DNA of 64,000 nt from a virus: IMG/VR virus record IMGVR_UViG_3300022903_000002, positions 41,083-105,082 of that record; one strand, 5' to 3'. The first letter of the stretch is position 1. Each line of letters opens with the position of its first letter. Positions 5,592 through 64,000 of this stretch are shown piece after piece. The position numbers and the translations under genes were made by a program. The notes beneath the pieces are model-generated. The model had not been told where the DNA came from. It worked only from the letters and a program-made list of their open reading frames with translations, and ran no database searches.

Positions 5592-5607
5592 CCAGCGGCT
5601 CCTTTTT
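5584..5607 (+). terminator. Terminator overlapping the tail-terminator stop codon
   Basis: GCCGC (5584-5588) pairs with GCGGC (5595-5599), followed by TCCTTTTT. The TGA stop is inside the hairpin. It probably partly insulates the highly expressed major tail gene. Confidence 0.6.
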
Positions 5608-5670
5608 CAGGCCCGCCAGCCTGTCCCAGCCCCGCCCGCGGGGCCACCTATCCCGCAGAGGGGAACATCC

Positions 5671-10300: not shown

Positions 10301-12134
10301 AGCCATCGATCCGAAGCTCGGCGGTGACGCGCATGGTGTTGTCGCCGCAGCGAAGAAATACATCGGTATCGGCGACGATAGAGGACCTAACAACAACATC
10401 TTCAGCCGCTGGTGGGGAATGCCGGGCGGGCCTTGGTGCTTCGCGGCCGGAACACTTGTGGACACCCCACAAGGCTTGGTCCCGATCGAGAACCTCAAGG
10501 TCGGCGACCCGGTCTACACCGGAACCGGCAATGTCCAGCGGGTGTCGTGTCTGTACAGGAGGCAGAAAGAGCTGTGGCGCGTCGTCGCCATGGGAATGCC
10601 CGAGACCTTCACGACCGAAGACCATCCGTATCTTGTGCGTAAGCGCCTCGCTGGGCGGAAGCGGGCGTTTGCGGAGCCGCAGCGCACATCGGTCAAGGAC
10701 CTCCGGAAGGGGGACCTGATCGGCCTTCCGCTCGGGCCGGAAGGAACGACGAAGTACGACCCGGACCTGAGTTACGTCCTCGGCATGTATGTCGCCGACG
10801 GATGCCGGAGCAAGGGCACCGTGATCTTCTCGGATGCCCCTGGTGAGACCGAACGGATCCTAACCGCCCTCAAGCGCGCCGGCTTCGATCGAGCATGGAC
10901 CACACGTAACGGCGGTGGGACGAACACGGGCATCACCGACAGCGGCCTCTACGAACTGTGCGGGAAGTTCGGGGACCTGGCACACAACAAGGAGATCCCC
11001 GATGAAGTCCACGCTTGGGATGCCGCCGCCAGGACCGCTTTCGTAGAGGGGTTCCTCGCCGGGGACGGGCACCTGAACGATGCGATCTCGTGCGGTGGTT
11101 CGCCGCGCTGGGAGGTCACGACCGTTTCACCGAAGTTGGCCGTCGGGCTGGCCAAACTACTGCGGTCCCTGGGGTTCCTCCCGTCGGTGAATGACGGTCG
11201 CCCTGAACAATCGCTGACGATCTGCGGACGGGATACACACTGCCGGAAGCAGTTCAAGCTGAGCTGGCGGAACGCCCATCGCGATGAACTTACCTATCAC
11301 CATTACGTCGAAGAGGACGGTGTCATCTGGGTTCCGGTTCGTGAGGCGGAGCCGACGGGGCGAGTCGAGTGCGTGTATGACATCACCGTTCCTGGCGAGC
11401 ACACATTCATCGCTAACGGAGCGTATTCGTTCAACTGCGCCATGTTCGTTTCTCGTGTCATCAAGGACGCCCACGCCGAGAAGTACTACTCCGGATATCC
11501 GACGGCGCTGGCCGCCGGGTACAACTCGATGCGGCATGTCAGTAGCGGGCAAGCTGGTGACCTCGCCACATACAACGGCGGCGGTCACATCAACATCATC
11601 GAGAAACCCGCTGGCGGGGCGTACATGACGATCGGCGGGAACCAGAACGCGCTCGTACAGCGCGGTATCCGGTCTCCCGGCCTGATTTTGCGCCCGGCGT
11701 TCGCGAACGGCGGGATCATCGGCCGAGAAGCGCAGCGCCTGTTCAAGCACGACGCACCGCGGCAGATCGACAAGCACGAACTGCAGACGCCGATGGTGCA
11801 ACTCATGCGTTCGCTGCCGTCCGGGCAGATGAGCAACGTTGTCCGCGCGATCACGAAGAAGCACCTCACCGTCGCGAACGCCGGCGTCTACGACGACGGA
11901 GGTGTTATTGCCCCTGGGTTGAACCTTGTCGCGAACGCGTCACGAAAACCGGAAGCGCTGCTGAGCAACGCGCAGTGGCGTGGCATCACCGAGGCCGCCG
12001 CTGGTGGCGACACGCACTATCACGCGCACCTGGACGAGATGACGCAGGCGGCCTACGGCACGCAGATCCGCTCGACATTCCACGCGATGGAAACCCAGCG
12101 GGCCATGAAAGAGCGCATCGGACGGAGGCGCTGA
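7392..12134 (+). CDS. Tape measure protein with C-terminal CHAP peptidase domain, interrupted by an intein
   Basis: 1580 residues (about 1247 after splicing). N-terminal helical/basic region, several hydrophobic segments around residues 200-260 and 470-680, and repeated Trp motifs (MWLWRN, MWLWHN, VWNxxxxPxFxA) typical of siphophage tape measures that set tail length and enter the cell membrane. Near the C-terminus a CHAP-type amidase/peptidase domain is split: GGPW at 1012-1015 and CAMFVSRV from 1349, then GGGHINIIEKP supplying the His. The intein occupies 1016-1348. The CHAP domain probably helps cell-wall penetration on DNA entry. Start GTG 7392 follows GGGGGTGG. Confidence 0.85.
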   Translation: MAAQVGAAYIKVAPNLAGFHRTITKELKSLSPQVKKIGLGLGRNLGDGIKVGLGDPLSGPLDESTKKQRQKGPKQGEEVAGAFAKGFEKRLKAAFQALPKAEIDADSSPADKKIAELRRQLEALSGKTVGVDIDAGAALSEVAAIRSELEALDGHESIQVDVDAAAALAELTAVQVEVDRVDGRTARVNVNADVLPALAGIGLVSTALLGLTAIPIAATVGVGILSLVGPLGAAGAGFAGLAAVATPSINRIGEALKVQKQAQDASTGSAAQAAAANKKLAATMAALSPAERDVLKSWNGLRTAFTGWAKELQPAVLPLFTRGINLVKQALPGLTPIVKGAAGAVNGLLGDVTRAAQSPFWRQLRTNITGLVPTSITGFGKIAGNIATGLAGIVSAFLPYAPTILSFITRITAGFARWGQGLGTSNGFAKFMAYVKQNAPLILETVKQLGLSIAHIVSSLAPLGPAVLGGFGLLLRFIGMLTPGEIQAIAIAFTLLSVSIWAVNFALEANPVVLVITLIVALVAAVVLAFNHVTWFHNAVVAAFNGIKAAVLFVWNSVLKPTFSALVVAFQAISTVVMWLWRNVISPAFSAISLAARILFAIVAVAVLAPLVIAFNILKAVILAWWHIVVVPAFAAVQAVIAAAWVVIHPILAALGVAVRAVGAAAMWLWHNAIVPAWNGISLAIATVYNTVIHPILNALNAVLRNVIAPVFRWIYTSVIKPMFQAAGAVIRNVWNTAISPAFNALKSGVNAVKNAFSTAVSAIGRIWKGLESATKKPVQFVVNTVYNNGIRSVWNKVAGLVHLPQLPAAKFAQGGIFPGYTPGKDPYSMPMAAFSGGEAVMRPEFTRAVGPGFVYAANKVARKRGPGGVRDFLANGEMKFATGGILPGRHVAAFANGGIIGGILGAVKRASSLVVRGASSVLGGGASAFAKTVLNPILSRIPGADSPWAQGILSLPKRMIDGFISWLHTAIDPKLGGDAHGVVAAAKKYIGIGDDRGPNNNIFSRWWGMPGGPWCFAAGTLVDTPQGLVPIENLKVGDPVYTGTGNVQRVSCLYRRQKELWRVVAMGMPETFTTEDHPYLVRKRLAGRKRAFAEPQRTSVKDLRKGDLIGLPLGPEGTTKYDPDLSYVLGMYVADGCRSKGTVIFSDAPGETERILTALKRAGFDRAWTTRNGGGTNTGITDSGLYELCGKFGDLAHNKEIPDEVHAWDAAARTAFVEGFLAGDGHLNDAISCGGSPRWEVTTVSPKLAVGLAKLLRSLGFLPSVNDGRPEQSLTICGRDTHCRKQFKLSWRNAHRDELTYHHYVEEDGVIWVPVREAEPTGRVECVYDITVPGEHTFIANGAYSFNCAMFVSRVIKDAHAEKYYSGYPTALAAGYNSMRHVSSGQAGDLATYNGGGHINIIEKPAGGAYMTIGGNQNALVQRGIRSPGLILRPAFANGGIIGREAQRLFKHDAPRQIDKHELQTPMVQLMRSLPSGQMSNVVRAITKKHLTVANAGVYDDGGVIAPGLNLVANASRKPEALLSNAQWRGITEAAAGGDTHYHAHLDEMTQAAYGTQIRSTFHAMETQRAMKERIGRRR
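10437..11435 (+). mobile_element. Intein with LAGLIDADG homing endonuclease inside the tape measure gene
   Basis: 333 residues. It starts at C1016 (block A: CFAAGTLVDTPQGLVPIENL), has block B (TTEDHPYLV, with the T-x-x-H pattern), two LAGLIDADG motifs (LSYVLGMYVADG at intein 111-122; FVEGFLAGDGHL at 202-213), block F (VYDITVPGEHTFIANG) and ends SFN before extein Cys1349. The penultimate intein residue is Phe, not the usual His, while block F keeps its His. Splicing restores PW-CAMF, so the +1 nucleophile is also the predicted catalytic cysteine of the CHAP domain. The bounds are set by these motifs. Confidence 0.9.
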
Positions 12135-25506: not shown

Positions 25507-25745
25507 GATGCGCTGTCCTCGGTGATCCCGCACGCCCCGCATGTCCACCCCGAAAGGGCGCAGTCCGACCCGCAACCATTCCAGTTACGGCACGTCGAAC
25601 ACTCTCGCCCGTTATGAAGCGCCCTCGCGGGCTGGCCGCACGTAAGGCATACGGCGACCTGGCCAGAGCCTCCACCCATCGCGCGGGGAAGGACGTTGCC
25701 GCTGTGGTCGGTCTCGTGGACGTCGCGGACCTCGAAGTTGCTCAC
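25503..25745 (-). CDS. Cys-rich zinc-binding small protein
   Basis: 80 residues. Eight Cys in CLTCG, CSTCRNWNGCGSDC and CGACG arrangements plus one His, likely two zinc sites. GTGA overlaps with both neighbours place it in the integrase transcript. Confidence 0.6.
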   Translation of the reverse strand: MSNFEVRDVHETDHSGNVLPRAMGGGSGQVAVCLTCGQPARALHNGRECSTCRNWNGCGSDCALSGWTCGACGITEDSAS

Positions 25746-26755
25746 GTCTCGCTCGCTTCCTGGTGGAGAGGCTCAGCCTCGCGGTCAGCCAACGTCTTTC
25801 GTCTGCGGGCCGCCAGGACGAGCCCAGGTCGCTTGTCGCGCCGGTTGCGCGCCCGGTCGTACCGACGAGTGGTCTTCGGATCCCGATGCCCCAGGGCGTC
25901 CTGTACGTCCACCAGCGGCACGCCTTCGTCCAGCGCGTGCGTGGCCATGGTGTGTCGCAGCGAGTGTGGGCCGAGCCGTTCCCACGACTTGATGCCCGCC
26001 GTGCGGGCGAGATGCCGGATCAGCCTCCAGGCATACGCCTGATCGATGCGGAAGCCGGAGACGTTCAGGAACAGAGGCTCATCTTTTGCGGGCTTGCCGC
26101 GCTCCGCGAGGTAGGCATCGAGCGCTTCGGCGGCAATCTCCTCGATATGGCGGTGCGTGATGCTGCCGCCCTTCATAGTCAGGGCGATGGTCCGCTCGCC
26201 CTCGTTCCAGCCGAGGTCTCCGATGTTGGCGGCTACCACTGAGCCGACGCGTAGGCCGGCGTAGAACAGGACGGCGATCAGGGCCGCCGAACGCTTGCAG
26301 TCAGCCTCTGCGGCGTCGAGCAGCTGGTTGAGTTCGGCTTCGCTCAGCCCGACGGCGTTAGAGACGCTCTGGTCGATCTTGGGCCGCTTCACGGCCTTGG
26401 CGGGGTTGGTCTCGATGACCTCTTCGTCGGTGAGGTACTGGTACCACGAGGACACGACGGCCAGGCGGCGGGAGATCGAAGCGGGGGAGTAGCTCACCTG
26501 CTGGAGTGCGTGCTTGTAGGCATCCACGTGAGCGCGGCGGACCTTGAGCGGGTCGAGGTCGCGCTCGGCGCACCAGGGGAGCCAGCCGGGAACCTTCATA
26601 CGTGGGGCGGTGCTCATGAGGTCGCGAGCGTAAGCGACCTTGGTGTGTTCGCTGCCCTGGGCGAGTAGCCATGCAGCGACCATCTGCCGGATCGTGTCTT
26701 CAGCATCGTTTGACCGCGCGGGAAGAGGCGCGACAGTCGGTTCGAGGGCGGTCAT
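25742..26755 (-). CDS. int: Tyrosine recombinase / integrase (first of two)
   Basis: 337 residues from ATG 26755 (ATGA overlap with the gene before). N-terminal SAM-like core-binding domain (about 20-115), C-terminal catalytic domain with Arg169 (AGLRVGS), Lys195, His264 and Arg267 (HSLRHTMATHA), His290 (LGHRD) and Tyr299 (RRYDRAR). All catalytic residues are present. It is more XerD/phage-like and unrelated in detail to the integrase at 54.8 kb. No attachment site is evident beside it and it is embedded in an operon by overlaps on both sides. Confidence 0.85.
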   Translation of the reverse strand: MTALEPTVAPLPARSNDAEDTIRQMVAAWLLAQGSEHTKVAYARDLMSTAPRMKVPGWLPWCAERDLDPLKVRRAHVDAYKHALQQVSYSPASISRRLAVVSSWYQYLTDEEVIETNPAKAVKRPKIDQSVSNAVGLSEAELNQLLDAAEADCKRSAALIAVLFYAGLRVGSVVAANIGDLGWNEGERTIALTMKGGSITHRHIEEIAAEALDAYLAERGKPAKDEPLFLNVSGFRIDQAYAWRLIRHLARTAGIKSWERLGPHSLRHTMATHALDEGVPLVDVQDALGHRDPKTTRRYDRARNRRDKRPGLVLAARRRKTLADREAEPLHQEASET

Positions 26756-27654
26756 CTCTTCCACAAGTGGACCTTCTCTCCGCCGAGCATCGGCGCTCCC
26801 TCGGGGCCTTTAACATGGGGGGCGATCCAAACCGGGCGATGAACCTCACGCTTTGGGTGCCATTGCTGTCGCCAGTGTCCCCTGACGATCCACTGGTGGT
26901 GGTATTCCCGTCCTGATGCTTCGGATTCGTCCGAGGATGTCTGGGAGCGTCGCAAGGTGATGATCCTCACGGGGGCCGCTTCAGGATCGATCCGAGCTAT
27001 ACGTTTGCGGTCAGCGCGAGAGTAGGTCGCGTCTTCAATGTTCAGGATCGACTGCTGCATCAGTGTCCAGAATGTCTTCGTGACCGCGCCGTGTTTCTGG
27101 GCGCTATCGACATCGGCTGGCTTCCCGGGTTCTTGTCCGAACGACCACCAGCCGGGGACATGTGTCTCGTGAACTAGCGGGAGCATCCGCCTTGTCGCTT
27201 CGACCAGTTTGGGATACGCGGAGATCTGGTCCGTGTAGTCCCGGCGCTCTGTCAGCCAGATCGTTTGAACACCCTGGCCTTCGAGTACAGCCCAAGCGAA
27301 CCCGTGGACTCTCTCCGTAATGGGTTCGAACACGTTTGGAGCTACTTCGACTTCGTAGTCTCGATTCCAAAGAGGTTCGGGAGTGTAGAGCAGGCCGACC
27401 ATCGAGGGAAGATCCTCTTGTTGCAGAGAGTAGTCAGGGATGGTTTTTGCAGCCTCGACCGCCAGTTGGGCCATCTGCGGAGCGACGTAGTAGAGGTCAA
27501 CGCTCACGGAGGCGAGAAGATCAGCAAACTTGATCCGCATTGCTGTAGGCGTCTCAGATGGGTAGACGTTGTCGAAGAACGCCTCGGCGCGACCGTCTCG
27601 GTACCAGGCCAAGAGGTCATGCTTGATCATCGGTAGATCGACTGCGCGGATCAT
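26752..27654 (-). CDS. Protein of unknown function upstream of the integrase
   Basis: 300 residues. C-terminus holds HHQWIVRGHWRQQWHPKREVHRPVWIAPHVKGPEGAP, a motif recurring in actinobacterial mobile-element proteins of unknown function; the N-terminal 200 residues are helical with several Trp. Overlaps int1 by four bases, so they are co-translated. A defence or regulatory role is a guess. Confidence 0.55.
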   Translation of the reverse strand: MIRAVDLPMIKHDLLAWYRDGRAEAFFDNVYPSETPTAMRIKFADLLASVSVDLYYVAPQMAQLAVEAAKTIPDYSLQQEDLPSMVGLLYTPEPLWNRDYEVEVAPNVFEPITERVHGFAWAVLEGQGVQTIWLTERRDYTDQISAYPKLVEATRRMLPLVHETHVPGWWSFGQEPGKPADVDSAQKHGAVTKTFWTLMQQSILNIEDATYSRADRKRIARIDPEAAPVRIITLRRSQTSSDESEASGREYHHQWIVRGHWRQQWHPKREVHRPVWIAPHVKGPEGAPMLGGEKVHLWKR

Positions 27655-35338: not shown

Positions 35339-37282
35339 TTAGGCGGCGACTGACGCCAGCCGCTGTTTGCCCCGTTCGGTGATGCGATACAGTCCGCGAC
35401 CGGTCTTCTCGATCTCGCCCGAGGCGACCAGGTCGGTGAGAGCCTTGGTGATAGTGCGGAGCGCCGGCGGCGGGGACATGTGGGTCTGGATGAACCCGAC
35501 CATCTCCCCTCGGTTCACTTCCTGGCCGTCCCGCTCCGCCAGATAACTCAAGACGGCGTCTTCGCCGATGCGGGACTGGTCGGAGTCGTCCTGTGTGTCC
35601 GCCTTCGATGACTGGCTTTGTGGGGTGTGGGCGCTGGCTCCGTCGCCGCCGGCGACAGGACCGACGAACGGCTCGAGTTGCGCCGGCTCCCCGCTCGTTG
35701 CCCAACGTCGCGGCTTGATGATCAGGAACGTTCGCATCGTCGCGGGACGGTCAGCGCCGGGCCCGAACACGTAACCGAGACCTGAAGTCGTGTCTCCGTT
35801 CGGCCATTCCTTGGGCAGCGTGCACGGGTCGACGGGCATCGACCCGTTGAACGCGACCTGGCCCGAGAGGCGGTTCGCGGTGCGGAACACGATGACGTTC
35901 CCGGCGGCGACTGCGTCACGGATCGCCATGGAGTTGCCCAGGCTGTTCAACAGCGGCACTTGGGTGATTAGCCGGAATTTGATCCCGCACTTGCGGGACA
36001 TCGCGATCATTTCCTCAACGAGCGCACAGCAGACAGGGTCACCGAGGACGGTCTGCGCCTCGTCGACTGTGACGCTGATCATTGGCAGGCCGTGACGCGG
36101 GTCGCCGGGGGTGAACTCCTCGATGCCCTCGATCTCTTCGCCGTCCTCATCGACCCACCGGATCGTGGACATGAGTTCGTTGCGGGCGTACATACGGTCG
36201 CGGAGTTCACGGAGCCGGCCGCGGATCGCGTCGAGGCCACCAGCGAACTGAGCGACAGCGTTCTTCCACCCAGACTCGGAGTAGGACTGCCCGCGTTGCG
36301 GGTCCAGAAGGATCGAAGCGATCACACCAGAGTGGCGTTCCTCGGCGAGGAGGAGTTTGACGAGGACAGACTTCCCGGCGTCGGTGGATCCGGCGATGAG
36401 GTCGTGGACCGGCCCGGACCGTGGCCGGTAGTGCCGGTACGAGACAGGATTCCCGTCGGTGTACACGCCGATACGGGAGACACCAGTGGCGGTTTTGAGA
36501 GTCGGCCCAGGCCAGTGGTGAACCTCCTGGAGCGGGTTCTCGGCCTGCACGAGCACCCGGAAGTGCCGAAGGGACCCGTCGGGGGCCGGTTCGATACTGA
36601 TCGAGCCGGTCTTCAGGTGGAGTGCGCCACCGATGTCCTCGGTCGCCATAATCGCGCGCTTGTAGGTGCCTTTGGTGACTTCGCCCAGTCCGGCCCAGCC
36701 GCCGCGGATCTTCTCTACTTCGAGGATCCGCGAGTGCTCGAGCGGGCCGCCTGAGCAGGAGACATGGAGGCGCCACGACTCGACCAGCTCCGGGTCCTCC
36801 GCGACGGGCGCGACCTCGGGCGCCTGGTGGTTGCGGATGCGGTAGCGCCACCACCACGGCAACGCGAACGCCCCACCGACGATCGCGAGCCACGCGGGCA
36901 TCGGCTTGCCGACACCGTGCGCTGCGGCTTCCATGAGCCACAGCGTCGCCGCGATGATTGAGGTGACCGCGTGCAACTGCCGCCAGATATTCACGGCCTT
37001 GGCGTAGAGGGCCCACCATGTGCCGCCGGCGGTTACCGCGCCGGTTGCGAGGACCGCCCACCACGGGGCACTGAACACCTCCAAGGCGAACCCAGTGACG
37101 TAGGCGCCGCCCATGACCTCGACGGGGATGAGTTGGCGGCGGAACCGTCTCCCGACCTTGAACGTCCCGGCGAGGGCCCGGTGCTCCTTCTTCGGAGCGG
37201 ACGCCGCAGCGGCAACCGCTGGCTGGGACACGTCAACGCGAACCGTCTGCGGGTCCCGCTGCTCAACTGCTACGGCGTCCAT
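35339..37282 (-). CDS. FtsK/SpoIIIE-type DNA translocase (TraB-like conjugation protein)
   Basis: 647 residues. N-terminal hydrophobic segments (about 52-70, 73-93, 105-120, 128-145) anchor it in the membrane. Central motor domain has Walker A at 297-305 (AGSTDAGKS), Walker B at 401-408 (MISVTVDE) and the LITQVPLLNSLG sensor region. The C-terminal 75 residues form a winged helix, as in TraB proteins that bind short repeats (clt) and move double-stranded DNA between hyphae. Length and domain order fit AICE/plasmid TraB rather than a phage packaging ATPase or the longer cell-division FtsK. Confidence 0.85.
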   Translation of the reverse strand: MDAVAVEQRDPQTVRVDVSQPAVAAAASAPKKEHRALAGTFKVGRRFRRQLIPVEVMGGAYVTGFALEVFSAPWWAVLATGAVTAGGTWWALYAKAVNIWRQLHAVTSIIAATLWLMEAAAHGVGKPMPAWLAIVGGAFALPWWWRYRIRNHQAPEVAPVAEDPELVESWRLHVSCSGGPLEHSRILEVEKIRGGWAGLGEVTKGTYKRAIMATEDIGGALHLKTGSISIEPAPDGSLRHFRVLVQAENPLQEVHHWPGPTLKTATGVSRIGVYTDGNPVSYRHYRPRSGPVHDLIAGSTDAGKSVLVKLLLAEERHSGVIASILLDPQRGQSYSESGWKNAVAQFAGGLDAIRGRLRELRDRMYARNELMSTIRWVDEDGEEIEGIEEFTPGDPRHGLPMISVTVDEAQTVLGDPVCCALVEEMIAMSRKCGIKFRLITQVPLLNSLGNSMAIRDAVAAGNVIVFRTANRLSGQVAFNGSMPVDPCTLPKEWPNGDTTSGLGYVFGPGADRPATMRTFLIIKPRRWATSGEPAQLEPFVGPVAGGDGASAHTPQSQSSKADTQDDSDQSRIGEDAVLSYLAERDGQEVNRGEMVGFIQTHMSPPPALRTITKALTDLVASGEIEKTGRGLYRITERGKQRLASVAA

Positions 37283-39465: not shown

Positions 39466-39695
39466 GGGGTCGCCTCGACGTCTGACTGCTCGGCGTGAGC
39501 GCCCTGCGGCTTGATGTAGGTCCGGTACGCCCAGATGGCAGCGATGCCGAGTGTGATGATCACGATCAGCCCGACGAATCGCATGTACGTGTGGAGGTTG
39601 CGATCCATAGCGGTCGCGACCACTCCGCCGGCGACCGCCCCGGAGATGGTTGCGGCAACAACGGTCGTGACCACTGGCCTGATGTTGGTGGTCAT
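39462..39695 (-). CDS. Small two-span membrane protein
   Basis: 77 residues with two hydrophobic helices (VVTTVVAATISGAVAGGVVATA; FVGLIVIITLGIAAIWAY) and a short acidic tail. Fits Spd-type small membrane proteins of AICEs. Confidence 0.5.
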   Translation of the reverse strand: MTTNIRPVVTTVVAATISGAVAGGVVATAMDRNLHTYMRFVGLIVIITLGIAAIWAYRTYIKPQGAHAEQSDVEATP

Positions 39696-41218
39696 CCGGT
39701 CTTCACCTCACTGGTCTGCTGGTGGTCTTTTGGGGTGGTCGCGTCCGCCTGGTCGTTGCCGCGGTGTCCGCCTCCGACCGGTCGCGGACCGGCCTCCTGG
39801 ATCCGCTTGAGAGCCCAACTCGGGGAGAACCCGAACCGCTTGGCGAGGGCACGCTTCGACAGCGGCGACCCTGCCTGGACACTGGCGAGGTACGCGTCCA
39901 CTGCACGCTGGTTGTCCTCGGTGGATGGTTGCGGCTTGGTGGTCGCGTTCACATGGTCGCGTCCGGTCTTCCGGGTGGACTTCTTGGCCGGTCGCGTCCG
40001 GTTGGCCGGGTGGTCTTTTGGGGTGGTCGCGTCCGCCTGGTCACTGGACGCAGGAGGCTGGACGTTCGGGTAGTCGCGTCCACTGGTTTCGATGGCGGCG
40101 CGTCCGGTCGCGGTAGTGGTCGCGTCCACCGGTCGCGGGGTGGTCGCGTCCACCGGTCGCGGGGTGGTCGCGTCCACCGGTCGCGGGGTGGTCGCGTCCA
40201 GGTGGTCGCTCGGCCGCGTCCGGGTGGTCGCGGACAGGGTGGTCGCGGCGCCGTCCGTCCAGAACAGCCGGACGCGGGTCTTGGGTCCGGTGACCGGACG
40301 CGCGACGGTGGACGCGACCACCAACCGGACGGAGGGCCGGCGGTCTTTCGCGAGCCGCTTCTGGTTCTTCGCGATCGCCCTCTTGCGGTCGATCCTGTCG
40401 ATCTCCGTGACGGCCGCGGTCCACGCCTCGTCAACGGTTCTGATGCCGTAGCGGACCGCGAGGGACCATGCATGCCACGTGATGCGCGGGAACCGCAGCC
40501 ACCGGAGGATCCCGAACCGCGGCCGGGCCTCAGCGACCTTCCCTTTCGCGCGCAGGTGCTTGCGGTGAATCAGCGAGGAGTACAGCTCCCACAGGGCGAT
40601 GCCGACGAGGCTCATGGCACCGTAGGAGACCGCTTTGGGGTTGGGGTCGAGGTTGATGTGCTGACGTATCGTCTGCGCGTTAAGGCGTTCGGTGACGACA
40701 GGGCAGGCGTGCCAGTAGTTCATCGCGCCGGCCGAGCAGGCGAACAGCCAAGTCGCGAACCGGAATAGTGCGCCCCGGTCACCATCTTTGCGCGCTTGGT
40801 GGTACATCCAGCCGGTGAAAGCGGTCGTCAGCTCCCATGCGGCGGCAAATATCAGGGCGCCGAGAAGGGGCCAGCCGAGTTTGTCGTGCGCGAATCCGAT
40901 CTGCCCAATCCACGCGACCGCCATAGGAGCGAGAATCGGCCCCGTGATCATGACTCGCCGACCGACCGTTGGCATTAGCGCCTGGATCTTCTTCGCAAGT
41001 TTCTGCCGGGCGTGCTGGCGTCGAATGCGGCGCTTCGCCTGTTCGTTGGCGCGGGTCTGCTTCTTCTCCTCGTCGAGGATCAGTTTCTGCCGCTCGCGCT
41101 GAAGGCGCAGCTGTTCCCGTTCGTGGCTGAGACGAACACGGGTCTCTTCGGTGATGCGTGCCTGCTCGGCGGAGACCTGGATACGGGTGGCTTTGCGGTC
41201 GGCGGGGATCTCGCTCAT
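39692..41218 (-). CDS. DUF2637-type membrane/DNA-binding protein with DATTPRPV repeats
   Basis: 508 residues. N-terminal basic coiled coil (RLSHEREQLRLQRERQKLILDEEKKQ), four hydrophobic segments in about residues 88-215 (the DUF2637 region common in AICEs), a basic cytosolic part, then a low-complexity region with three exact DATTPRPV repeats and many other DATT units, and a C-terminal helix-turn-helix (SPLSKRALAKRFGFSPSWALKRIQEAG). Such proteins are found beside FtsK/TraB in actinomycete elements; the HTH implies DNA contact at the membrane, perhaps with the transferred element. Confidence 0.6.
   Translation of the reverse strand: MSEIPADRKATRIQVSAEQARITEETRVRLSHEREQLRLQRERQKLILDEEKKQTRANEQAKRRIRRQHARQKLAKKIQALMPTVGRRVMITGPILAPMAVAWIGQIGFAHDKLGWPLLGALIFAAAWELTTAFTGWMYHQARKDGDRGALFRFATWLFACSAGAMNYWHACPVVTERLNAQTIRQHINLDPNPKAVSYGAMSLVGIALWELYSSLIHRKHLRAKGKVAEARPRFGILRWLRFPRITWHAWSLAVRYGIRTVDEAWTAAVTEIDRIDRKRAIAKNQKRLAKDRRPSVRLVVASTVARPVTGPKTRVRLFWTDGAATTLSATTRTRPSDHLDATTPRPVDATTPRPVDATTPRPVDATTTATGRAAIETSGRDYPNVQPPASSDQADATTPKDHPANRTRPAKKSTRKTGRDHVNATTKPQPSTEDNQRAVDAYLASVQAGSPLSKRALAKRFGFSPSWALKRIQEAGPRPVGGGHRGNDQADATTPKDHQQTSEVKTG
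40116..40200 (+). repeat. 24-bp tandem repeat in the DUF2637-type gene
   Basis: Three perfect 24-bp copies (40116-40139, 40140-40163, 40164-40187) plus a 13-base partial copy, encoding DATTPRPV on the - strand. The decamer GGTCGCGTCC recurs outside the array (for example near 39733, 39956, 39970, 40026, 40075), so the whole C-terminal third is built from this unit. Confidence 0.85.
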
Positions 41219-44920: not shown

Positions 44921-45583
44921 ATGGACCCGGCTCAGGAGTGGACGGGGCGCACAGCCACCGCGCTCCGCAAAGCCCTACGATTGACCGTCGACCGGTTCGC
45001 CAGCCGACTCGGAGTAGCACCGCGGACTGTCGCGAATTGGTCAGCGCAGCCCGATATGGTCCCGCGCGTAAGCGTGCAGGACGCACTCGACGACCTGCTC
45101 GGCCAGGCGACTCCCGCCGTCCGAGAGCGCTTCACGGAACTTGCTGATGGCAATGAGGGTGCGTCGGTAGGCCATGCTCAATCGCTCCGTGTCGCGATCT
45201 CGGTGGTAACCCGGAATCGAGACGTGCTGCTCGTGAAGCGCCGTGATGACGGGGCAGGGATCTCTTGGCAGTTCCCGGCCGGCGTCATCAAACCGGGCGA
45301 ACGCGGCGAAGACGTAGCCGTGCGGGAGACCCTTGGGGAGACCGGCGTTCACTGCATCGTGCAACAGCCGATCGGCTCCCGGCTCCACCCCGTGACGGGT
45401 GTGTACTGCGACTACTACGCCTGCGACTTCCTCACGGGAGAAGCAGTGAACCGGGATACCGTGGAAAATGCCGGTGTCGCATGGGTGTCGCGCCAGGATC
45501 TGACCCGGTTCGTCGCCCGTGACAAGGTGTACCCGCCGATCTTGCGCTTCCTGGAGGAACAGCGTGACGCAGCCCACCGATAG
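44921..45583 (+). CDS. HTH-Nudix fusion protein with degenerate Nudix box (Pif-like)
   Basis: 220 residues, ATG after GGGAGGCGGG. Residues 10-70 form a helix-turn-helix (RLTVDRFASRLGVAPRTVANW). Residues 88-215 are a Nudix fold, with the box G121x5E127x7R135E136xxG139E140xG142: the first Glu of the metal-binding EE pair is Gly139. In the AICE pSAM2 the Nudix protein Pif blocks transfer into cells already carrying the element; a similar regulatory or sensor role is plausible. Coupled to the next gene by overlap. Confidence 0.7.
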   Translation: MDPAQEWTGRTATALRKALRLTVDRFASRLGVAPRTVANWSAQPDMVPRVSVQDALDDLLGQATPAVRERFTELADGNEGASVGHAQSLRVAISVVTRNRDVLLVKRRDDGAGISWQFPAGVIKPGERGEDVAVRETLGETGVHCIVQQPIGSRLHPVTGVYCDYYACDFLTGEAVNRDTVENAGVAWVSRQDLTRFVARDKVYPPILRFLEEQRDAAHR

Positions 45584-46001
45584 CCGCCCCGTCATCGCAG
45601 CGGCCGTGATCGTCAAAGACGGTCGCTTCCTGCTCGTGCAGCGGGCCGTCTCGGAGGGCAGCCTGTCGTGGCAGTTCCCGGCCGGCGAAGTCGAGCAGGG
45701 CGAATTGGTAGAGGACGCGGCTGTTCGGGAGACCGCCGAGGAGGCCGGGCTCGTCGTTGTCGCTAAGAGCAGGCTGGGGGAACGGATCCATCCCGCCACG
45801 GGCCGCGAGATGGTCTACGTCGAGTGCGAAGTCATCGACGGAGAAGCGCACGCCGCGGACGATGAGGAGATCGCTGCAGTCTCCTGGATCCGTCTCGACG
45901 AGATCCCCGAGTACGTCCCCTACGGCTTCTACAGGCCGGTGCACGAACACCTTGCCGAGAGGCTGGGAGGCGGACCGCGCGAGCGCACCACCGGCGAGTG
46001 A
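45564..46001 (+). CDS. Nudix hydrolase
   Basis: 145 residues from GTG 45564 (GGAGG seven bases upstream, inside the previous gene). Complete Nudix box G41x5E47x7R55E56xxE59E60xG62. It is clearly paralogous to the Nudix half of the preceding protein (both contain SWQFPAG at the same place), so the pair arose by duplication, one copy keeping the active site. Would hydrolyse a nucleoside diphosphate derivative. Ends at a terminator. Confidence 0.8.
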   Translation: MTQPTDSRPVIAAAVIVKDGRFLLVQRAVSEGSLSWQFPAGEVEQGELVEDAAVRETAEEAGLVVVAKSRLGERIHPATGREMVYVECEVIDGEAHAADDEEIAAVSWIRLDEIPEYVPYGFYRPVHEHLAERLGGGPRERTTGE

Positions 46002-48655: not shown

Positions 48656-48758
48656 TATCGGGGGTTCAGGTCGCCCGCAACTAGACGACTTTCCGCAGGT
48701 CACTTCACATGCGACCGTGCGCGGGTACCGTCCCCATTGACACCCCTGGGAGGGCTCG

Positions 48759-48890
48759 ATGGGCGCACACGGCGGCGGTGGCAACTCGGACGGCAAAGGC
48801 GGGGACGGGAACAACCCGCGAGGTGGCTCCCACAGCGGCGGTTCCGGATCCGGCGGTAACGCCGGCGACGGCAACAAGCCCGGCAAGTGA
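48759..48890 (+). CDS. Gly-rich 43-residue peptide, candidate RiPP precursor
   Basis: ATG 48759 with GGGAGGG upstream. 19 of 43 residues are Gly, five are Asn; there is no Cys and hardly any hydrophobic residue. It holds three Asp-Gly pairs (SDGK, GDGN, GDGN), the dipeptide most prone to aspartimide formation. The stop overlaps the start of the PIMT-like methyltransferase (GTGA), so peptide and enzyme are made together. This is the layout of imiditide-type clusters, in which a PIMT homologue installs aspartimide in a short peptide. Lack of a clear leader/core split is a caution. Confidence 0.55.
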   Translation: MGAHGGGGNSDGKGGDGNNPRGGSHSGGSGSGGNAGDGNKPGK

Positions 48891-50059
48891 CACCTGGCGA
48901 CCTCGCCGCACGCATCGACCGCCTGTGCGACCAGCTCGTCTCCAGCGGGGATCTACGAAGCCCTGTCTGGCGGGCTGCATTCCACGCGGTCCCGCGGCAC
49001 CTGTTCGTCCCTGACAGGGCCTGGGCTTCCCCGAACGGCCCCGAAGCCGGCTACTCGATCGACCGTTCCTCCGACATGGACGGCTGGCTCGACGCCGTGT
49101 ACTCCGACGCCGCGATCATCACCCAACGCAACGACGGGCGAGCGGACGTCAACGGCGGTGGTGAACCGTCGAGTTCATGCTCCGCGCCGGCGACCGTCGC
49201 AGAGTTCCTCGAGTATCTGACCCCGGACGACTTCAACCGGGTCCTCGAGATCGGCACAGGAACCGGCTGGACTGCGGCGCTACTGTCGCACCGGGTCCGG
49301 GCCTGCAACGTCACATCCATCGATATCGATCCGGTCGTGTCCGAGACGGCAGCGAAGAACCTCGCGGAGACGGACTACCATCCGCGGCTGATCGTGGGCG
49401 ACGGGACGGCCGGCCACGGGTCCGGGGCGCCGTTCGACCGGGTTCATGTGGCGGTGGGCGTCGCGGACATCCCTCATGCGTGGGTCGACCAGACACGCCC
49501 GGGTGGGGTGATCGTGTTGCCGTTCATGCCCGGGTACGGCTTCGGGTGGCTCGCCCGCCTGCACGTCCTCGGTGACGGCACGGCGGTGGGCCGGTTCGTT
49601 GGGTCTGCCGGGTACATGATGCTCCGCGGGCAGCGTCCGGCATGCCGGGCGATCCCAGATCTGCCGAAGGCCGGGCTGGTCGAGTCGACTACGCGACTGG
49701 ATCCGCGGCGGGTCCACACGGACACGAACGTCGACCTGTTCATCGCTGCGTCGATGCCGGGCGTTCAGGAGCGCCTCTTCTACGGCGACGGTGATGCGGC
49801 GGACGAGTGCACGCTGTGGCTCATCGAGTCGGGTGACACGGGGTCGTGGGCGTCCGTGGACTACGTCCCGGGCCGGGCCGAGTTCGTCGTGGAGCAGTAC
49901 GGTGCGCGCCGTCTGTGGGACGAGGTTGAGGGGACGTACATGCGGTGGCTTGGCTGGGGGCGGCCGGGCATCGAACGGCTCGGGCTAACGGTCTCACCGG
50001 ACGGCCAGTACGTGTGGTTGGACTCCCCGGACCGCGTGTTGACGCCGGGTGGGGGATGA
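48887..50059 (+). CDS. PIMT-like O-methyltransferase (aspartyl)
   Basis: 390 residues, GTG start coupled to the peptide gene. Residues 1-200 match protein-L-isoaspartate methyltransferase: AVPRHLFVPDRAW, SAPATVAEFLEYL (substrate loop), and the SAM motif VLEIGTGTGWTAALL (119-133) followed by VTSIDIDP. The C-terminal 190 residues are an extra domain absent from housekeeping PIMT (about 210 residues) and present in the RiPP-associated homologues. Likely methylates Asp in the upstream peptide, leading to aspartimide/isoAsp. Confidence 0.75.
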   Translation: MTPGDLAARIDRLCDQLVSSGDLRSPVWRAAFHAVPRHLFVPDRAWASPNGPEAGYSIDRSSDMDGWLDAVYSDAAIITQRNDGRADVNGGGEPSSSCSAPATVAEFLEYLTPDDFNRVLEIGTGTGWTAALLSHRVRACNVTSIDIDPVVSETAAKNLAETDYHPRLIVGDGTAGHGSGAPFDRVHVAVGVADIPHAWVDQTRPGGVIVLPFMPGYGFGWLARLHVLGDGTAVGRFVGSAGYMMLRGQRPACRAIPDLPKAGLVESTTRLDPRRVHTDTNVDLFIAASMPGVQERLFYGDGDAADECTLWLIESGDTGSWASVDYVPGRAEFVVEQYGARRLWDEVEGTYMRWLGWGRPGIERLGLTVSPDGQYVWLDSPDRVLTPGGG

Positions 50060-54559: not shown

Positions 54560-54797
54560 GGGAGCACGGGGAGCACGGACGTGCTTTTCGGGGGTGCTCT
54601 CGGTCCTCTGCTGTCCGAGCCTGTCCGGTCTCAACCAGGAGATTTAGGGTCTGACCTGCGTGGAGGTTTAGGGAAACCTCGTTCACACCGAAGAGGTCAC
54701 TGGTTCGAACCCAGTATCGCCCACCCAAGGTCAGGCCCGCTTTTCCGGTCAGGACAAGATCGGCTAGAGCGGTTCTCGGGAGCACATCTGGGAGCAC
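54560..54797. other. Attachment site: tRNA-Val(CAC) 3' half flanked by paired arm repeats (attP-like)
   Basis: 54679-54725 equals the 3' part of a tRNA-Val gene: anticodon loop TTCACAC (anticodon CAC), stem, variable loop, T arm GGTTCGAACCC and acceptor strand ATCGCCCACC. No 5' half is present upstream. GGGAGCAC occurs at 54560 and 54569 on the left and at 54778 and 54790 on the right, as expected of integrase arm-binding sites. The integrase gene ends 102 bases to the right of the core. Confidence 0.75.
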
Positions 54798-54826: not shown

Positions 54827-56308
54827 TCATGCGGTCCCACCATCCGTGTCGCTGAGCAGCTTGTGTAGCAACGGTACGGGCGATGTCGGACAGATCTCCC
54901 GACGTGCAGCGAGTGTTCTCAACCACCGACGTTGCAGCGCATCGATCAGTTCCGCTCGCATCGCGTCGGACACATGGGTATACCGGCCGCCCATGCCTGG
55001 CTCGCGGTGCCCCATCCGCTCACGCTGCAGAATCCGCGGGATGCGGTCTTCTTCCATGTGCGTGTTGTGTCCATGCCGAAGCCCGTGCGGAACGACGCCC
55101 TTCTTGACGGGTAGCCACGACGCGAGCGCAACATCCTCGGGGATCCGGGAGCGCCCTTTACCCTGCCCGACCGCGGGCGGGGAGAAAGGAACACCGGGTT
55201 CGGCCATCGGCCATGCCTGTAGCGGTCGTCCCGGCCACGGATCTGCGTCGACCAAGACAGGTCTTGCCGGCACCTCAACGTCGCCGCGCTTGCGGGCAGG
55301 GTAGATGCCGTCCCAAGCCGGATGCCAAAACCGGCGCGCGTAGTTGCTTCGACGGAAGTGTCCACCATTTGGTCCCAAGAAGACCCAGCCGGTGCCGCCG
55401 CAGTCTCTGCCACGTCCATCGCACTCGCATCGCCCGCTGTGTTCGCCCGAGACGCCCTGGAGAAGATCGTGGAGGAACGGGGGCAGATCGACCCGGGAGA
55501 TGCCGTCGCCGGGGTCGTGCGTGCGGTAGGAGTCGCTCTTAAGCGGCTCGCGGAGGAACTTCCCTGCGACCTCAGGTAGTTGCCAGTCGAGCTCGTAGAA
55601 GTATCCGACGCCGTCAGCCTGGAGGTACTTCCGCTGCATCCCCTGGACCTCAGCCCACCGCATGCCTGTCCAGCCGATGGTGACGACCATGGCGAAGTCC
55701 AGGTCCCGGCCGGACAGGACCGAGATCCGCTCCGCGGCGAGTACCACCTCGAGCGAGGAGGGCCACTTCTTCGCTGCACGGCCGCGCCCCACTCTCCCCG
55801 AGCGACGGCCGCGAGCTCGAGGTGGCCGGGCGGCTGCGTTGGTTCTCAGGTTCGTGTTCGGGTCGAGAGCAGCGTCTCCGAGGATGGTGAACAGAAGGCT
55901 CCGTGCAGACGCGGCGGTGGTGGCGGCGTAATCGCGTTTGATGCCGTTCTCCCACACTGTGATCTCCAGTGTGGTGAGCGTCTCGAGAGTGCGGCCCCCG
56001 AACGCGGGCAGGATGAACGCTTCGATGTACCAGCGGTAGTTGTTGGTGGTGTTCCGGCTGAGATCTTGCGCCGGCCACCACATGTTGACCCATGTACTCA
56101 CCGTCAGGCTCTCTGGGCTGGCTGGATCGATAGGTGCTGCCTGGCCGAGCTGCTCCCAGCCGTACTTCTCAGCAGCGACTTTGTCGGCGAATGGCACGCC
56201 TTCGCCGTCGCGGGTGGCGGAGCGTAGGTCACCGTTCTGGTCGGGCCAGCGGACACGCCAGCGGTCGCCACGTCGCTCGACGAACGGGCGTCTACGGTTC
56301 GGCGGCAT
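54827..56308 (-). CDS. int: AICE-type tyrosine integrase (second of two)
   Basis: 493 residues. N-terminal AP2-like arm-binding domain (ERRGDRWRVRWPDQNGDLRS), core-binding domain (about 65-150), catalytic domain with Arg217 (TGMRWAE), His408 and Arg411 (HGLRHGHNTH), His434 (MGHREP) and Tyr443 (GRYTHV). Two insertions, a Cys cluster (C294, C296, C303) and a long Pro-rich linker before the HxxR box, are typical of Streptomyces AICE/prophage integrases. Stop lies beside the tRNA-Val core, the classical int-attP layout. Confidence 0.9.
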   Translation of the reverse strand: MPPNRRRPFVERRGDRWRVRWPDQNGDLRSATRDGEGVPFADKVAAEKYGWEQLGQAAPIDPASPESLTVSTWVNMWWPAQDLSRNTTNNYRWYIEAFILPAFGGRTLETLTTLEITVWENGIKRDYAATTAASARSLLFTILGDAALDPNTNLRTNAAARPPRARGRRSGRVGRGRAAKKWPSSLEVVLAAERISVLSGRDLDFAMVVTIGWTGMRWAEVQGMQRKYLQADGVGYFYELDWQLPEVAGKFLREPLKSDSYRTHDPGDGISRVDLPPFLHDLLQGVSGEHSGRCECDGRGRDCGGTGWVFLGPNGGHFRRSNYARRFWHPAWDGIYPARKRGDVEVPARPVLVDADPWPGRPLQAWPMAEPGVPFSPPAVGQGKGRSRIPEDVALASWLPVKKGVVPHGLRHGHNTHMEEDRIPRILQRERMGHREPGMGGRYTHVSDAMRAELIDALQRRWLRTLAARREICPTSPVPLLHKLLSDTDGGTA

Positions 56309-58485: not shown

Positions 58486-59349
58486 TTACGCGAGCGCAGC
58501 AATGAACTCTGCGCTTTTACTTGGTGTAAGAGCAGCGTCGGTGACGCTGCCCCATGCGAGTCTAAAGCGCTGAACCGCCGTTTTACTCTCCGAGTAGGCA
58601 CTTCCGGACAAATTCTCGGTATGTACCACATCGGGATAGTCTTCATGGTCGAACTCGAAAATGATGAACGGGCCGCCAAGCCCAGCGTGTGCGCCTGCAC
58701 TGTACGGCAGCACTTGAAGGGTGACGTTCTCACGTTGCCCCATTTCCATCAGGTGCCTGAGTTGCGCACGCATAACATCGGTACCGCCAACCTGCTGGCG
58801 TATCGCTGTCTCGCCTAGCACAGCGTGCAATTGTGGCGGATTTATTCGGTCAAGGATGGCGCGGCGTTCACGGCGAGCACGGACGCGCCGTTCGAGATCG
58901 TCGGTCTCCCACGTGTCCGGTGCCGCGAGTCCGTCTGCGAACAGCGCGCGAGCGTAGGCGTCGGTTTGCAGGAGGCCCGGCACGACCTGAGACTGAAATG
59001 ACAGGATCTGGTGTGCTTCGTCTTCTGTGACGGCGAACACGTCATGGAGGACGTCGCCGTATTCCAGCCACCAGCCCGATCGGAATGCCTCGGCAGCGAG
59101 GTCGAGGAGTTCGCGTTGTTGATCGAACGTCAGGTGGTAGCGGTTGAAGAGCGCCTTCATGGTCTCTTGGTCGCTCTGGTGGAGGCCTCTTTCGATGCGG
59201 CTCACGGTTGAGGCGTTGACGTCGATGTCGGCCGCGACCTGCGCAAGGTCCAGTCCGAATTGTTCACGGGTTGCTTTGAGGATCGCGCCGAGACGGCGGG
59301 CCTTAATGGTAGGGGTGTGCCCTCGCGCCATGGCTGTTGAGTCTGTCAT
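58486..59349 (-). CDS. Scr1/DUF5753-family XRE regulator
   Basis: 287 residues. N-terminal HTH (RLGAILKATREQFGLDLAQVAADIDVNASTVSRIERGLHQSD), then the DUF5753 body (AEAFRSGWWLEYGDVLHDVFAVTEDEAHQILSFQSQVVPGLLQTDAYARALFADG ... GPFIIFEFDHEDYPDVVHTENLSGS). This family regulates development and antibiotics in Streptomyces and acts with DUF397 partners. As an element gene it is a candidate immunity repressor. Tandem 20-bp repeats lie before its start. Confidence 0.8.
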   Translation of the reverse strand: MTDSTAMARGHTPTIKARRLGAILKATREQFGLDLAQVAADIDVNASTVSRIERGLHQSDQETMKALFNRYHLTFDQQRELLDLAAEAFRSGWWLEYGDVLHDVFAVTEDEAHQILSFQSQVVPGLLQTDAYARALFADGLAAPDTWETDDLERRVRARRERRAILDRINPPQLHAVLGETAIRQQVGGTDVMRAQLRHLMEMGQRENVTLQVLPYSAGAHAGLGGPFIIFEFDHEDYPDVVHTENLSGSAYSESKTAVQRFRLAWGSVTDAALTPSKSAEFIAALA

Positions 59350-63735: not shown

Positions 63736-63884
63736 GCGGCTTCCGACGCCTGGTCAAGGGCTGCCGCCACGCCCGCCTGATCTCGCTGAAGCGCGAGTAC
63801 TCGCCCGGCTTCACGCCCCGGCACGCGAAGCCCGCCCCGGTCGAGGGGTCCACGCTCACACCAGAGATGGGACTCGCGGCATGA
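63732..63884 (+). CDS. 50-residue basic protein
   Basis: GTG 63732 (GTGA). MSGFRRLVKGCRHARLISLKREYSPGFTPRHAKPAPVEGSTLTPEMGLAA. Stop overlaps the ATPase start (ATGA). Unknown. Confidence 0.5.
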   Translation: MSGFRRLVKGCRHARLISLKREYSPGFTPRHAKPAPVEGSTLTPEMGLAA

Positions 63885-64000
63885 CCGAGATGGATTTCGT
63901 CGACGCCACTCCCGAAGCGGAGAAGGCGCGCATCGCACTGCAGGGCCCGTCCGGCTGCGGGAAGACATGGTCCGCGCTGCGGATCGCCGGCGGTCTCGGC
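63881..64000 (+). CDS. P-loop ATPase, N-terminal part (partial)
   Basis: Runs off the right edge after 40 residues. RIALQGPSGCGKTWSALRIAGGLG is a Walker A of the AAA/RecA-like type found in phage recombination/replication ATPases (Sak4-like and related). The gene order (early, after coiled-coil protein) fits. Exact family needs the rest of the gene. Confidence 0.65.
   Translation, partial: MTEMDFVDATPEAEKARIALQGPSGCGKTWSALRIAGGLG

What the first reader, a model, noticed from the sequence alone, without database searches (positions are those of the whole stretch)
48759..50059. Two-gene RiPP-like unit: Gly-rich peptide coupled to a PIMT methyltransferase
A 43-residue peptide with 19 Gly and three Asp-Gly pairs is translationally coupled to a 390-residue PIMT homologue with the extra C-terminal domain. 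Imiditide clusters consist of just such a pair (established knowledge). A mobile-element version would be a new setting, and the peptide is unusually polar.
Basis: partly seen in the sequence, partly recalled or inferred. Interest (0 to 1): 0.8.

Follow-up and report, generated by a model that had tools for sequence, protein, structure and literature searches.

The report
Phage-carried imiditide peptide and methyltransferase
A virus of an actinomycete bacterium carries a two-gene kit that makes a small glycine-rich peptide and an enzyme expected to re-kink its aspartates; the kit belongs by sequence to the recently described imiditide (pamtide) peptides, whose purpose is unknown, and its presence in several bacterial viruses gives a direct way to find out what such peptides do.

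Summary
The peptide is real: coupled peptides stand beside the closest homologues (70% and 67% identity), codon changes fall mostly on third positions, and three Asp columns are invariant in ten precursors, the window's included. The enzyme has a SAM motif, the extra C-terminal domain and WXXXGXP of RiPP-modifying PIMTs, and a confident model (pLDDT 95). Of three RiPP primary-enzyme families sought, none was found in the record. It files under imiditides / type I pamtides; the chemistry was not tested. As a variant it has 44% Gly, little Pro, near-neutral charge and three fixed Asp. The setting is a temperate tailed-phage genome: one gene is split over the record ends, and a tRNA-Val half lies beside an integrase. 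The pair is also in isolated Streptomyces venezuelae phages, other viral contigs, plasmids and genomes, so a mobile setting is not new in data, though no paper I searched mentions it. Most likely it is prophage cargo whose product is an isoAsp peptide; that function is inference.

The parts
48748..48753 (+). Shine-Dalgarno-like GGGAGG, 5 bases before the peptide ATG
   Evidence: read directly; purine-rich sites before the peptide start in the homologous loci, by eye
48759..48890 (+). precursor peptide gene, 43 aa, Gly-rich, three Asp-Gly pairs
   Evidence: homologous coupled peptides; third-position excess of changes
48789..48794 (+). D11-G12 (Asp invariant in 10 of 10 precursors, Gly not)
48804..48809 (+). 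D16-G17 in GGDGNNPxGG (Asp invariant in 10 of 10, Gly in 9 of 10), candidate modification site
48867..48872 (+). D37-G38 in GNxGDGNKP (both invariant in 10 of 10; a DG after GN also in the phage precursors), first-choice modification site
   Evidence: the choice is inference
48887..50059 (+). PIMT-like peptide L-aspartyl O-methyltransferase (PAMT), 390 aa, start overlaps the peptide stop (GTGA)
   Evidence: Pfam PCMT E 6e-29; TIGR04188 291 bits, under its 380 cut-off; phrog_13505 E 1e-120; model pLDDT 95 and fold matches
49247..49267 (+). SAM-binding motif EIGTGTG (residues 121-127)
   Evidence: the three Gly invariant in 49 of 49
49784..49807 (+). acidic loop GDGDAADE (residues 300-307) in the C-terminal domain, possible docking site for the precursor's basic end
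   Evidence: sequence and alignment; role inferred from the NmaM loop described in PMC13001092
49946..49966 (+). WXXXGXP motif (WLGWGRP, residues 354-360) of RiPP-associated PIMTs
   Evidence: motif described in PMC13001092
54679..54725 (+). 3' half of tRNA-Val(CAC), attP-like core; context of the unit, not part of it
   Evidence: 97.9% identical to a Nonomuraea gerenzanensis plasmid sequence and 92.9% to a chromosomal place that is a tRNA-Val(cac) gene
54827..56308 (-). tyrosine integrase beside the attP-like core (context)
   Evidence: Pfam Phage_int_SAM_3, and Phage_integrase under its cut-off; phrog_1 E 4e-29

Best explanation
It is a type I pamtide / imiditide pair carried as cargo by a temperate tailed phage of an actinomycete. 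Shown: a conserved, translationally coupled Gly-rich peptide with three fixed Asp, a PIMT-fold methyltransferase with the extra C-terminal domain, and phage-family genes on both sides. Inferred from characterised relatives: the enzyme binds the unmodified linear peptide through its C-terminal domain, methylates one or more Asp (D37 first, D16 next) with SAM, the amide of the following Gly closes an aspartimide, and water opens it mostly to isoAsp, leaving a stable kinked backbone. Inferred from position and recurrence: the pair is a moron, probably made in lysogens for the benefit of lysogen and prophage. No neighbour that I scanned matched an exporter or protease family, so the product either acts in the cell or uses host export.
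For: Coupled peptide at 19 of 31 loci by the strict rule and 24 of 31 by the relaxed rule that also allows F, W and C (controls 9 and 12 of 3714 strict, 30 of 3714 relaxed; 8 and 26 of 930 groups of four starts). Asp columns 11, 16, 37 invariant in 10 of 10 precursors chosen by eye, the window's included. Codon-position pattern. PCMT domain, methyltr_grsp and FxLD-type relatives; SAM motif and WXXXGXP; 49-row model with pLDDT 95.1; Foldseek rank 1 is T. maritima PIMT 1dl5 over 388 alignment columns (rmsd 7.9), VIA Z 27.5 for 312 residues within 9-381, rmsd 6.7. No ATP-grasp, LanB or lasso B2 match in the record. Phage setting: head protease, major head protein, tape measure, endolysin, integrases, TerL, DnaB-like helicase, replication initiator, and PHROG-family genes to the right of the attP-like core; one gene (phrog_1366) split over the record ends, profile 2-39 at the right end and 73-268 at the left, so I read the record as a circularly permuted genome with the unit interior. 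Same kind of pair in isolated phages and in contigs with terminase or portal. Reaction precedent: SpaM/SpaA and NmaM/NmaA (PMC10787088 sections 8 and 10, PMC13001092 section 10).
Against: No modification was measured. The peptide differs from typical type I precursors (Gly 44% against 17.3%, Pro 5% against 16.8%) and is nearly neutral (4 K/R, 3 D), whereas the review stresses strong positive charge. 7 of 31 homologue loci lack a recognisable coupled peptide, and of 53 viral-collection homologues only 9 have one by the strict rule and 15 by the relaxed one. The phage methyltransferases lack the exact WXXXGXP (WNGRSRP), and 15 of 49 rows of A4 lack it. The long fold match has a high rmsd, so the C-terminal domain is matched only loosely. 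No sigma-70-like promoter or terminator was found by the scan, so expression in the lysogen is not shown.
Confidence: 0.8

Rival explanations
1. The methyltransferase is an ordinary protein-repair PIMT that fixes isoAsp in old proteins, and the Gly-rich ORF is a chance reading frame in GC-rich DNA.
For: Closest solved structures are repair PIMTs; Gly codons are common here (mean 10% Gly over window codons).
Against: Peptide conserved in overlap, start and Asp columns; third-position excess; 19 of 31 loci against 9 of 3714 control starts; extra C-terminal domain and WXXXGXP; NCBIfam repair-PIMT models score far under their cut-offs.
Confidence: 0.03
2. It is the tailoring methyltransferase of another RiPP class (graspetide, lanthipeptide or lasso peptide) whose primary enzyme lies elsewhere.
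For: Best NCBIfam model is the graspetide methyltransferase family (291 bits); a plasmid homologue (L105) sits in a tgmA/tgmB graspetide cluster.
Against: Under that model's 380-bit cut-off; no ATP-grasp, LanB or lasso B2 match in the 105-kb record (the LanB control rang nowhere, so that one is weak); a host-borne enzyme is not excluded. The 13 flanking proteins tried have no relatives beside the homologues held.
Confidence: 0.05
3. Chemistry as in the best explanation, but the product works for the phage during infection (for example as a slow Asp-to-isoAsp clock, or on a host target), not for the lysogen.
For: No scanned neighbour matched an exporter or protease family; the aspartimide opens slowly by hydrolysis (PMC13001092 section 10); in PapayaSalad and Alderaan the pair lies between a regulator and the lysis genes.
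Against: The same kind of pair stands in genome contigs and plasmids, though I did not test which of those lie in prophages; in the window it lies near the attP-like core, apart from replication and structural genes.
Confidence: 0.12
4. The pair is a recent passenger picked up from a host and does nothing for this phage.
For: Of the flanking genes tried none accompanies the pair in the homologous loci held (13 proteins); its nearest relatives come from genome contigs, of which only L001's neighbours were read, by eye.
Against: Both reading frames are intact and the Asp columns are kept; at least three separated branches of the tree hold pairs from phage contigs.
Confidence: 0.15

Closest known systems
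Imiditides / type I pamtides (NmaA-NmaM, SpaA-SpaM)
   Same: Two genes only, precursor next to a PAMT with C-terminal domain; precursor of about 45 aa, Gly- and Asp-containing, with Asp near Gly or Pro; basic last residue (8 of 10).
   Different: 44% Gly, 5% Pro, near-neutral, three invariant Asp; carried by a phage. NmaA has His after the modified Asp, here Gly, so hydrolysis to isoAsp should be quicker (inference). Their letters were not available for alignment.
Austintatiousvirus phages of Streptomyces venezuelae: 'hypothetical protein' plus 'O-methyltransferase' (peptide read in PapayaSalad and Alderaan, and in IMG/VR records of the lengths of Austintatious and Ididsumtinwong; Bioscum's peptide not read)
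   Same: Gly-rich peptide ending GNSSDGSGP(S/A)K directly before a PAMT (43-45% identity over 96% of the query), PapayaSalad with a serine integrase.
   Different: 8-base gap instead of an overlap; the GN..DG block near the C-terminus is shared but not the middle DG; separate branch of the tree.
   Same: Same pair, 67% and 70% identical enzyme, precursors of 43 and 42 aa with the same Asp columns.
   Different: L001 lies near an SDR-like and a molybdopterin-oxidoreductase-like gene (read by eye), not visibly in a phage.
Graspetide-associated methyltransferases (TIGR04188; L105 tgmA/tgmB)
   Same: Relatives over nearly the full length (model positions 1-361 of 363).
   Different: Act on ATP-grasp-cyclised precursors; no such ligase matched here.

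Membership tests
imiditide / type I pamtide | two-gene cluster: small precursor next to a PAMT, no primary enzyme of another RiPP class | tested here: met
   TIGR04187 and PF13471 no match; PF04738 no match but its control rang nowhere; other RiPP classes not sought
imiditide / type I pamtide | PIMT homologue with C-terminal extension of over 100 aa | tested here: met
   390 aa against 208-235 for the PIMT chains other than 1dl5 (317); model confident through about residue 380; 1dl5 aligned within model residues 9-381 at rmsd 6.7
imiditide / type I pamtide | WXXXGXP near the C-terminus | tested here: met
   WLGWGRP 354-360; 34 of 49 rows of A4 have it
[quoted passage not shown]
   43 aa; D11, D16, D37 invariant in 10 of 10 precursors chosen by eye
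imiditide / type I pamtide | rich in Gly, Pro and Asp (17.3%, 16.8%, 10.2%), also Lys | tested here: inconclusive
   Gly 19/43, Pro 2/43, Asp 3/43, K+R 4/43; Gly far above, Pro below, so a variant composition
imiditide / type I pamtide | Asp methylation, aspartimide and/or isoAsp in the product | not testable with these tools
   needs mass spectrometry
cysimiditide / type II pamtide | two CXXCXGXG zinc motifs in the precursor | tested here: not met
   no Cys in the peptide
graspimiditide (graspetide with methyltransferase) | ATP-grasp maturase in the cluster | tested here: not met
   TIGR04187: no match in the record; the control rang in 7 of 14 genomes, none over the cut-off
canonical repair PIMT (Pcm) | enzyme scoring over the Pcm/pimt cut-offs | tested here: not met
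   TIGR00080 83 bits against 159; PRK00312 104 against 188

The most novel reading that the evidence does not exclude
Imiditides are a recurrent class of prophage conversion genes: several unrelated temperate phages of actinomycetes carry a peptide-PAMT pair that gives the lysogen a multi-site isoAsp peptide acting on rivals or on superinfecting phages. The window's subfamily, with three fixed Asp, two of them in repeated GDGN(x)P motifs, is a multi-site isoaspartyl peptide rather than a single-aspartimide one.
Probability: 0.3. Interest if true: 0.75.

Novelty: new variant of a known kind. Interest (0 to 1): 0.52.

Why it matters
The 2026 review names no biological role for imiditides and calls linking aspartimidylated RiPPs to function the bigger challenge (PMC13001092 conclusion). 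Finding the pair in isolated phages of a laboratory host (Streptomyces venezuelae ATCC 10712) makes the question testable in a simple way: compare a lysogen with and without two small genes. Phage carriage would suggest a fitness benefit that needs little beyond the peptide and the enzyme, and would help explain how such pairs spread among genomes, plasmids and phages.

Tried and rejected
Chance ORF and repair-PIMT readings: rejected on conservation, control counts and domain structure. Other RiPP class with a missing primary enzyme: none of three families found (one search's control was silent, so weak). A shared promoter upstream: the 110 bases before the peptide start in 23 loci show by eye no common element beyond the ribosome site, apart from a GTACCGTCC stretch shared by the window and L001; the promoter scan found none. 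Conserved neighbours (immunity, export): tblastn of 13 flanking window proteins against the loci then held gave nothing at E 1e-4 outside the window and its copy L002. tblastx of the window with four 20-kb regions (L098-L101) was printed only in part: the first 3000 characters, and the first eight pieces of 60 aa or more outside the unit for each region, which are 24-37% identical and scattered, save one that is the enzyme's own reverse frame; I draw little from it. The window's XRE/DUF5753 regulator (58486-59349), some 9 kb from the unit, was not among the 13 and does have weak relatives in many loci. PHROGs, Pfam and NCBIfam gave no family for the peptide. PADLOC mad2 hits cover the shared methyltransferase core and occur in all three proteins tried; I read no defence role from them. 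First structure job with two sequences failed (pLDDT 29.6). The first viral scan with the single protein found nothing; the alignment query did. The BFVD fold search gave seven matches at E 0.001 or better, to shorter proteins or to parts. The original imiditide paper is not held, so NmaA and SpaA letters were not compared.

Rows dropped or chosen before counts: from the tree I left out L003 (same place as L001), L031 (disrupted frame), L006 and L007 (distant), L010 (broken), L096 and L097 (short matches), and the length filter dropped L077 and L095. The ten precursors were chosen by eye, the 26. Searches examined the window copy (L002), L003 and L011-L039. Of the 50 viral-locus enzymes that passed the length filter, three near-duplicates (L056, L069, L070) were left out of A4. 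Six of 474 plasmid records were inspected.

Full report
Observation. The peptide has 43 residues, 19 Gly and DG at 11-12, 16-17 and 37-38. Its TGA overlaps the GTG start of the 390-aa enzyme as GTGA, the usual sign of translational coupling, and a GGGAGG site precedes its ATG.

Is the peptide real? Differences between peptide ORFs fall mainly on third codon positions: 9/8/20 for window-L011 and 11/12/25 for window-L001. A strict mechanical rule (same strand, 28-60 aa, ribosome site, at least 78% hydrophilic residues, contains Asp, no F/W/C, stop near a candidate enzyme start) is met at 19 of 31 homologue loci, the window included, and at 9 of 3714 control start codons in the same loci. Because one to four candidate starts were tried per locus, I repeated the control with groups of four starts: 8 of 930 (single starts redrawn 12 of 3714). 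Allowing F, W and C gives 24 of 31, against 30 of 3714 single controls and 26 of 930 groups. Seven loci have none: L017, L020, L026, L028, L031, L036 and L038. All 8 loci at 55% identity or more, the window among them, have one.

Conservation. Ten alignable precursors of the window's subfamily, the window's included and chosen by eye, have invariant M1, G2, H4, D11, D16, P20, G22, G23, G28, N34, D37 and G38 (window numbering); G17 is Ser in one, and the residue after D11 varies. In a wider set of 26 only M1 is invariant and H4 nearly so; most begin MG(K/R)H. The phage precursors of L008, L051 and L054 share with the window the C-terminal GNxxDG block, which makes D37 my first candidate for modification; this is inference.

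The enzyme. Pfam PCMT, E 6e-29. NCBIfam ranks the graspetide methyltransferase model first, 291 bits against a cut-off of 380, and repair-PIMT models are far under their cut-offs. It has the SAM motif EIGTGTG and WLGWGRP, the WXXXGXP of RiPP-associated PIMTs described in PMC13001092 section 11. A model from 49 sequences has mean pLDDT 95.1. Foldseek's first match is T. maritima PIMT 1dl5 over 388 alignment columns with rmsd 7.9; VIA-align gives 1dl5 Z 27.5, 312 residues within 9-381, rmsd 6.7, while shorter PIMTs match residues of about 5-250 at Z up to 28.7. The catalytic domain match is therefore close and that of the C-terminal domain loose. PMC10787088 section 7 names 1dl5 as, to its authors' knowledge, the only solved structure in the RiPP-associated clade. 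The tree of 85 rows puts the window with L011 and L001 (100/98) inside a 35-row clade (100/100) made of 29 enzymes from genome contigs, five from viral contigs and the window.

The setting. The window is part of a 105,082-base virus record. It has a head protease, major head protein, tape measure, minor tail protein, endolysin and two tyrosine recombinases, and outside the window a large terminase subunit, DnaB-like helicase and replication initiator. One gene of phrog_1366 is split over the record ends: profile 2-39 at the right end (window 63881-64000), 73-268 at the left. I read the record as a circularly permuted genome with a short gap, so that the unit is interior, not host flank. At 54679-54725 lies the 3' half of tRNA-Val(CAC) (weak Rfam tRNA score, 21.6 bits under the gathering score of 29; no complete tRNA found in the record), about 100 bases from the integrase gene 54827-56308. 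With phage-family genes on both sides I read it as attP; the unit would then lie within about 6 kb of one prophage end. That is inference from one record.

Other mobile carriers. Of 50,697 phage records, 10 have a homologue and 8 cover at least 80% of the query: five named Streptomyces venezuelae phages. I read the peptide in PapayaSalad and Alderaan, and in two IMG/VR records of the same lengths as Austintatious and Ididsumtinwong (L049, L050); Bioscum's was not read. In IMG/VR, 55 loci encode relatives; of the 53 examined (L096 and L097 left out as short partial matches), 9 have a coupled peptide by the strict rule (control 7 of 3180) and 15 by the relaxed one (control 13 of 3180), so most viral-collection relatives do not show the pair. 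L045 has terminase and portal genes within 6 kb of its pair; L051 an integrase that also matches DNA invertases and a tail spike, with a terminase in its record; the records of L044 and L089 have a portal match. By those two families no head gene was found in the records of L046, L047, L053 and L054, and in L043's only a weak portal match; the window's own record also has neither, its terminase being of another family. The window, the Austintatiousvirus-L051-L054 group and L044-L045 (with L037 from a genome contig among them) are three separate places in the tree. Among plasmids 474 records have a homologue, 100 covering at least 80% of the query; I inspected six by eye: five have a coupled peptide (L102, L103, L104, L107, and L106 if an internal start is used) and one is a graspetide cluster (L105). 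So mobility itself is not new in the data.

In print. In the papers held I found no mention of phage carriage: pamtide with phage 0 papers; imiditide with prophage 1 paper, PMC11048544, where prophage means Rac (passages); aspartimide, RiPP and bacteriophage 2 papers, that one and PMC13352647, the latter seen only as listed; five papers hold 'imiditide' or 'pamtide', four listed; 'phage' occurs 0 times in PMC13001092 and PMC10787088. The original imiditide paper is not held. A survey of actinobacterial prophages with antiSMASH found small putative biosynthetic clusters in 0.6% (13 of 2112), several of them class I lanthipeptide-like in Streptomyces prophages (PMC10023795, passages). That phages can carry biosynthetic clusters is known in general (Dragos 2021, seen only as a reference).

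Mechanism. From PMC10787088 (sections 7, 8, 10) and PMC13001092 (sections 10-12), read: PAMTs methylate Asp of a linear precursor, the next amide closes an aspartimide, which hydrolyses to isoAsp and Asp; recognition needs the precursor's C-terminus and, in NmaM, an acidic loop of the C-terminal region. Here the precursor ends in K or R in 8 of 10 and the enzyme has an acidic stretch at 300-307; that these meet is inference. In NmaA changing the residue after Asp to Gly lowered the aspartimide amount, so a DG precursor should end mainly as isoAsp. None of this was measured.

Verdict. It is a variant in composition and in having three fixed Asp, and its place in several phages is its most interesting side, because it offers a clean genetic test of what these peptides are for.

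Noticed in passing
window 7392-12134: The tape measure protein (1580 aa) contains an intein-like insert at about residues 1012-1344: Hint_2 E 3e-9, with Intein_splicing and LAGLIDADG_3 matches under their cut-offs. An intein in a tape measure gene is uncommon as far as I recall.
   Followed up: partly
window 63881-64000 and L040 36-737: One phrog_1366 gene is split across the two ends of the record (profile 2-39 and 73-268), so the 'linear' virus record looks like a circularly permuted, nearly complete genome.
   Followed up: yes
window 25742-26764 and 54827-56308: Two tyrosine recombinases in one phage genome; the second lies beside a tRNA-Val 3' half.
   Followed up: partly
window 35339-37282 and 39692-41218: FtsK/SpoIIIE-like and DUF2637-like proteins (both under their Pfam cut-offs), which recall transfer genes of actinomycete integrative elements, inside a phage genome.
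   Followed up: no
window 44921-45583 and 45519-46001: Two overlapping NUDIX-domain genes in tandem, the first with an N-terminal helix-turn-helix match under its cut-off.
   Followed up: no
L040 19524-20000 (same numbers in the record): The phage encodes a tRNA-His guanylyltransferase relative (phrog_4717 E 5e-40; only the first 159 aa were scanned).
   Followed up: no
L054 3653-4867, L044 7233-8423, L008 2653-3876: Regulators of phrog_5823 (L054, L044), and in PapayaSalad a 37% identical relative, lie near the peptide-methyltransferase pair; relatives also occur in a dozen other viral homologue loci, most without a recognised peptide.
   Followed up: partly
window 58486-59349; L011 304-1050 and other loci: The window's XRE/DUF5753 regulator has weak relatives (24-39% identity) in many homologue loci, in L011 upstream of the pair; such regulators are very common in actinomycetes (recalled), so chance is likely.
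   Followed up: no
L010 (Saccharomonospora phage PIS 136) 4929-5650: The methyltransferase homologue is annotated as two short ORFs (apparently broken) behind a helix-turn-helix and a DUF397 gene; I saw no Gly-rich precursor in the ORF list.
   Followed up: no
L008 4675-4768: In phage PapayaSalad an annotated tRNA-Arg stands directly upstream of the precursor gene.
   Followed up: no
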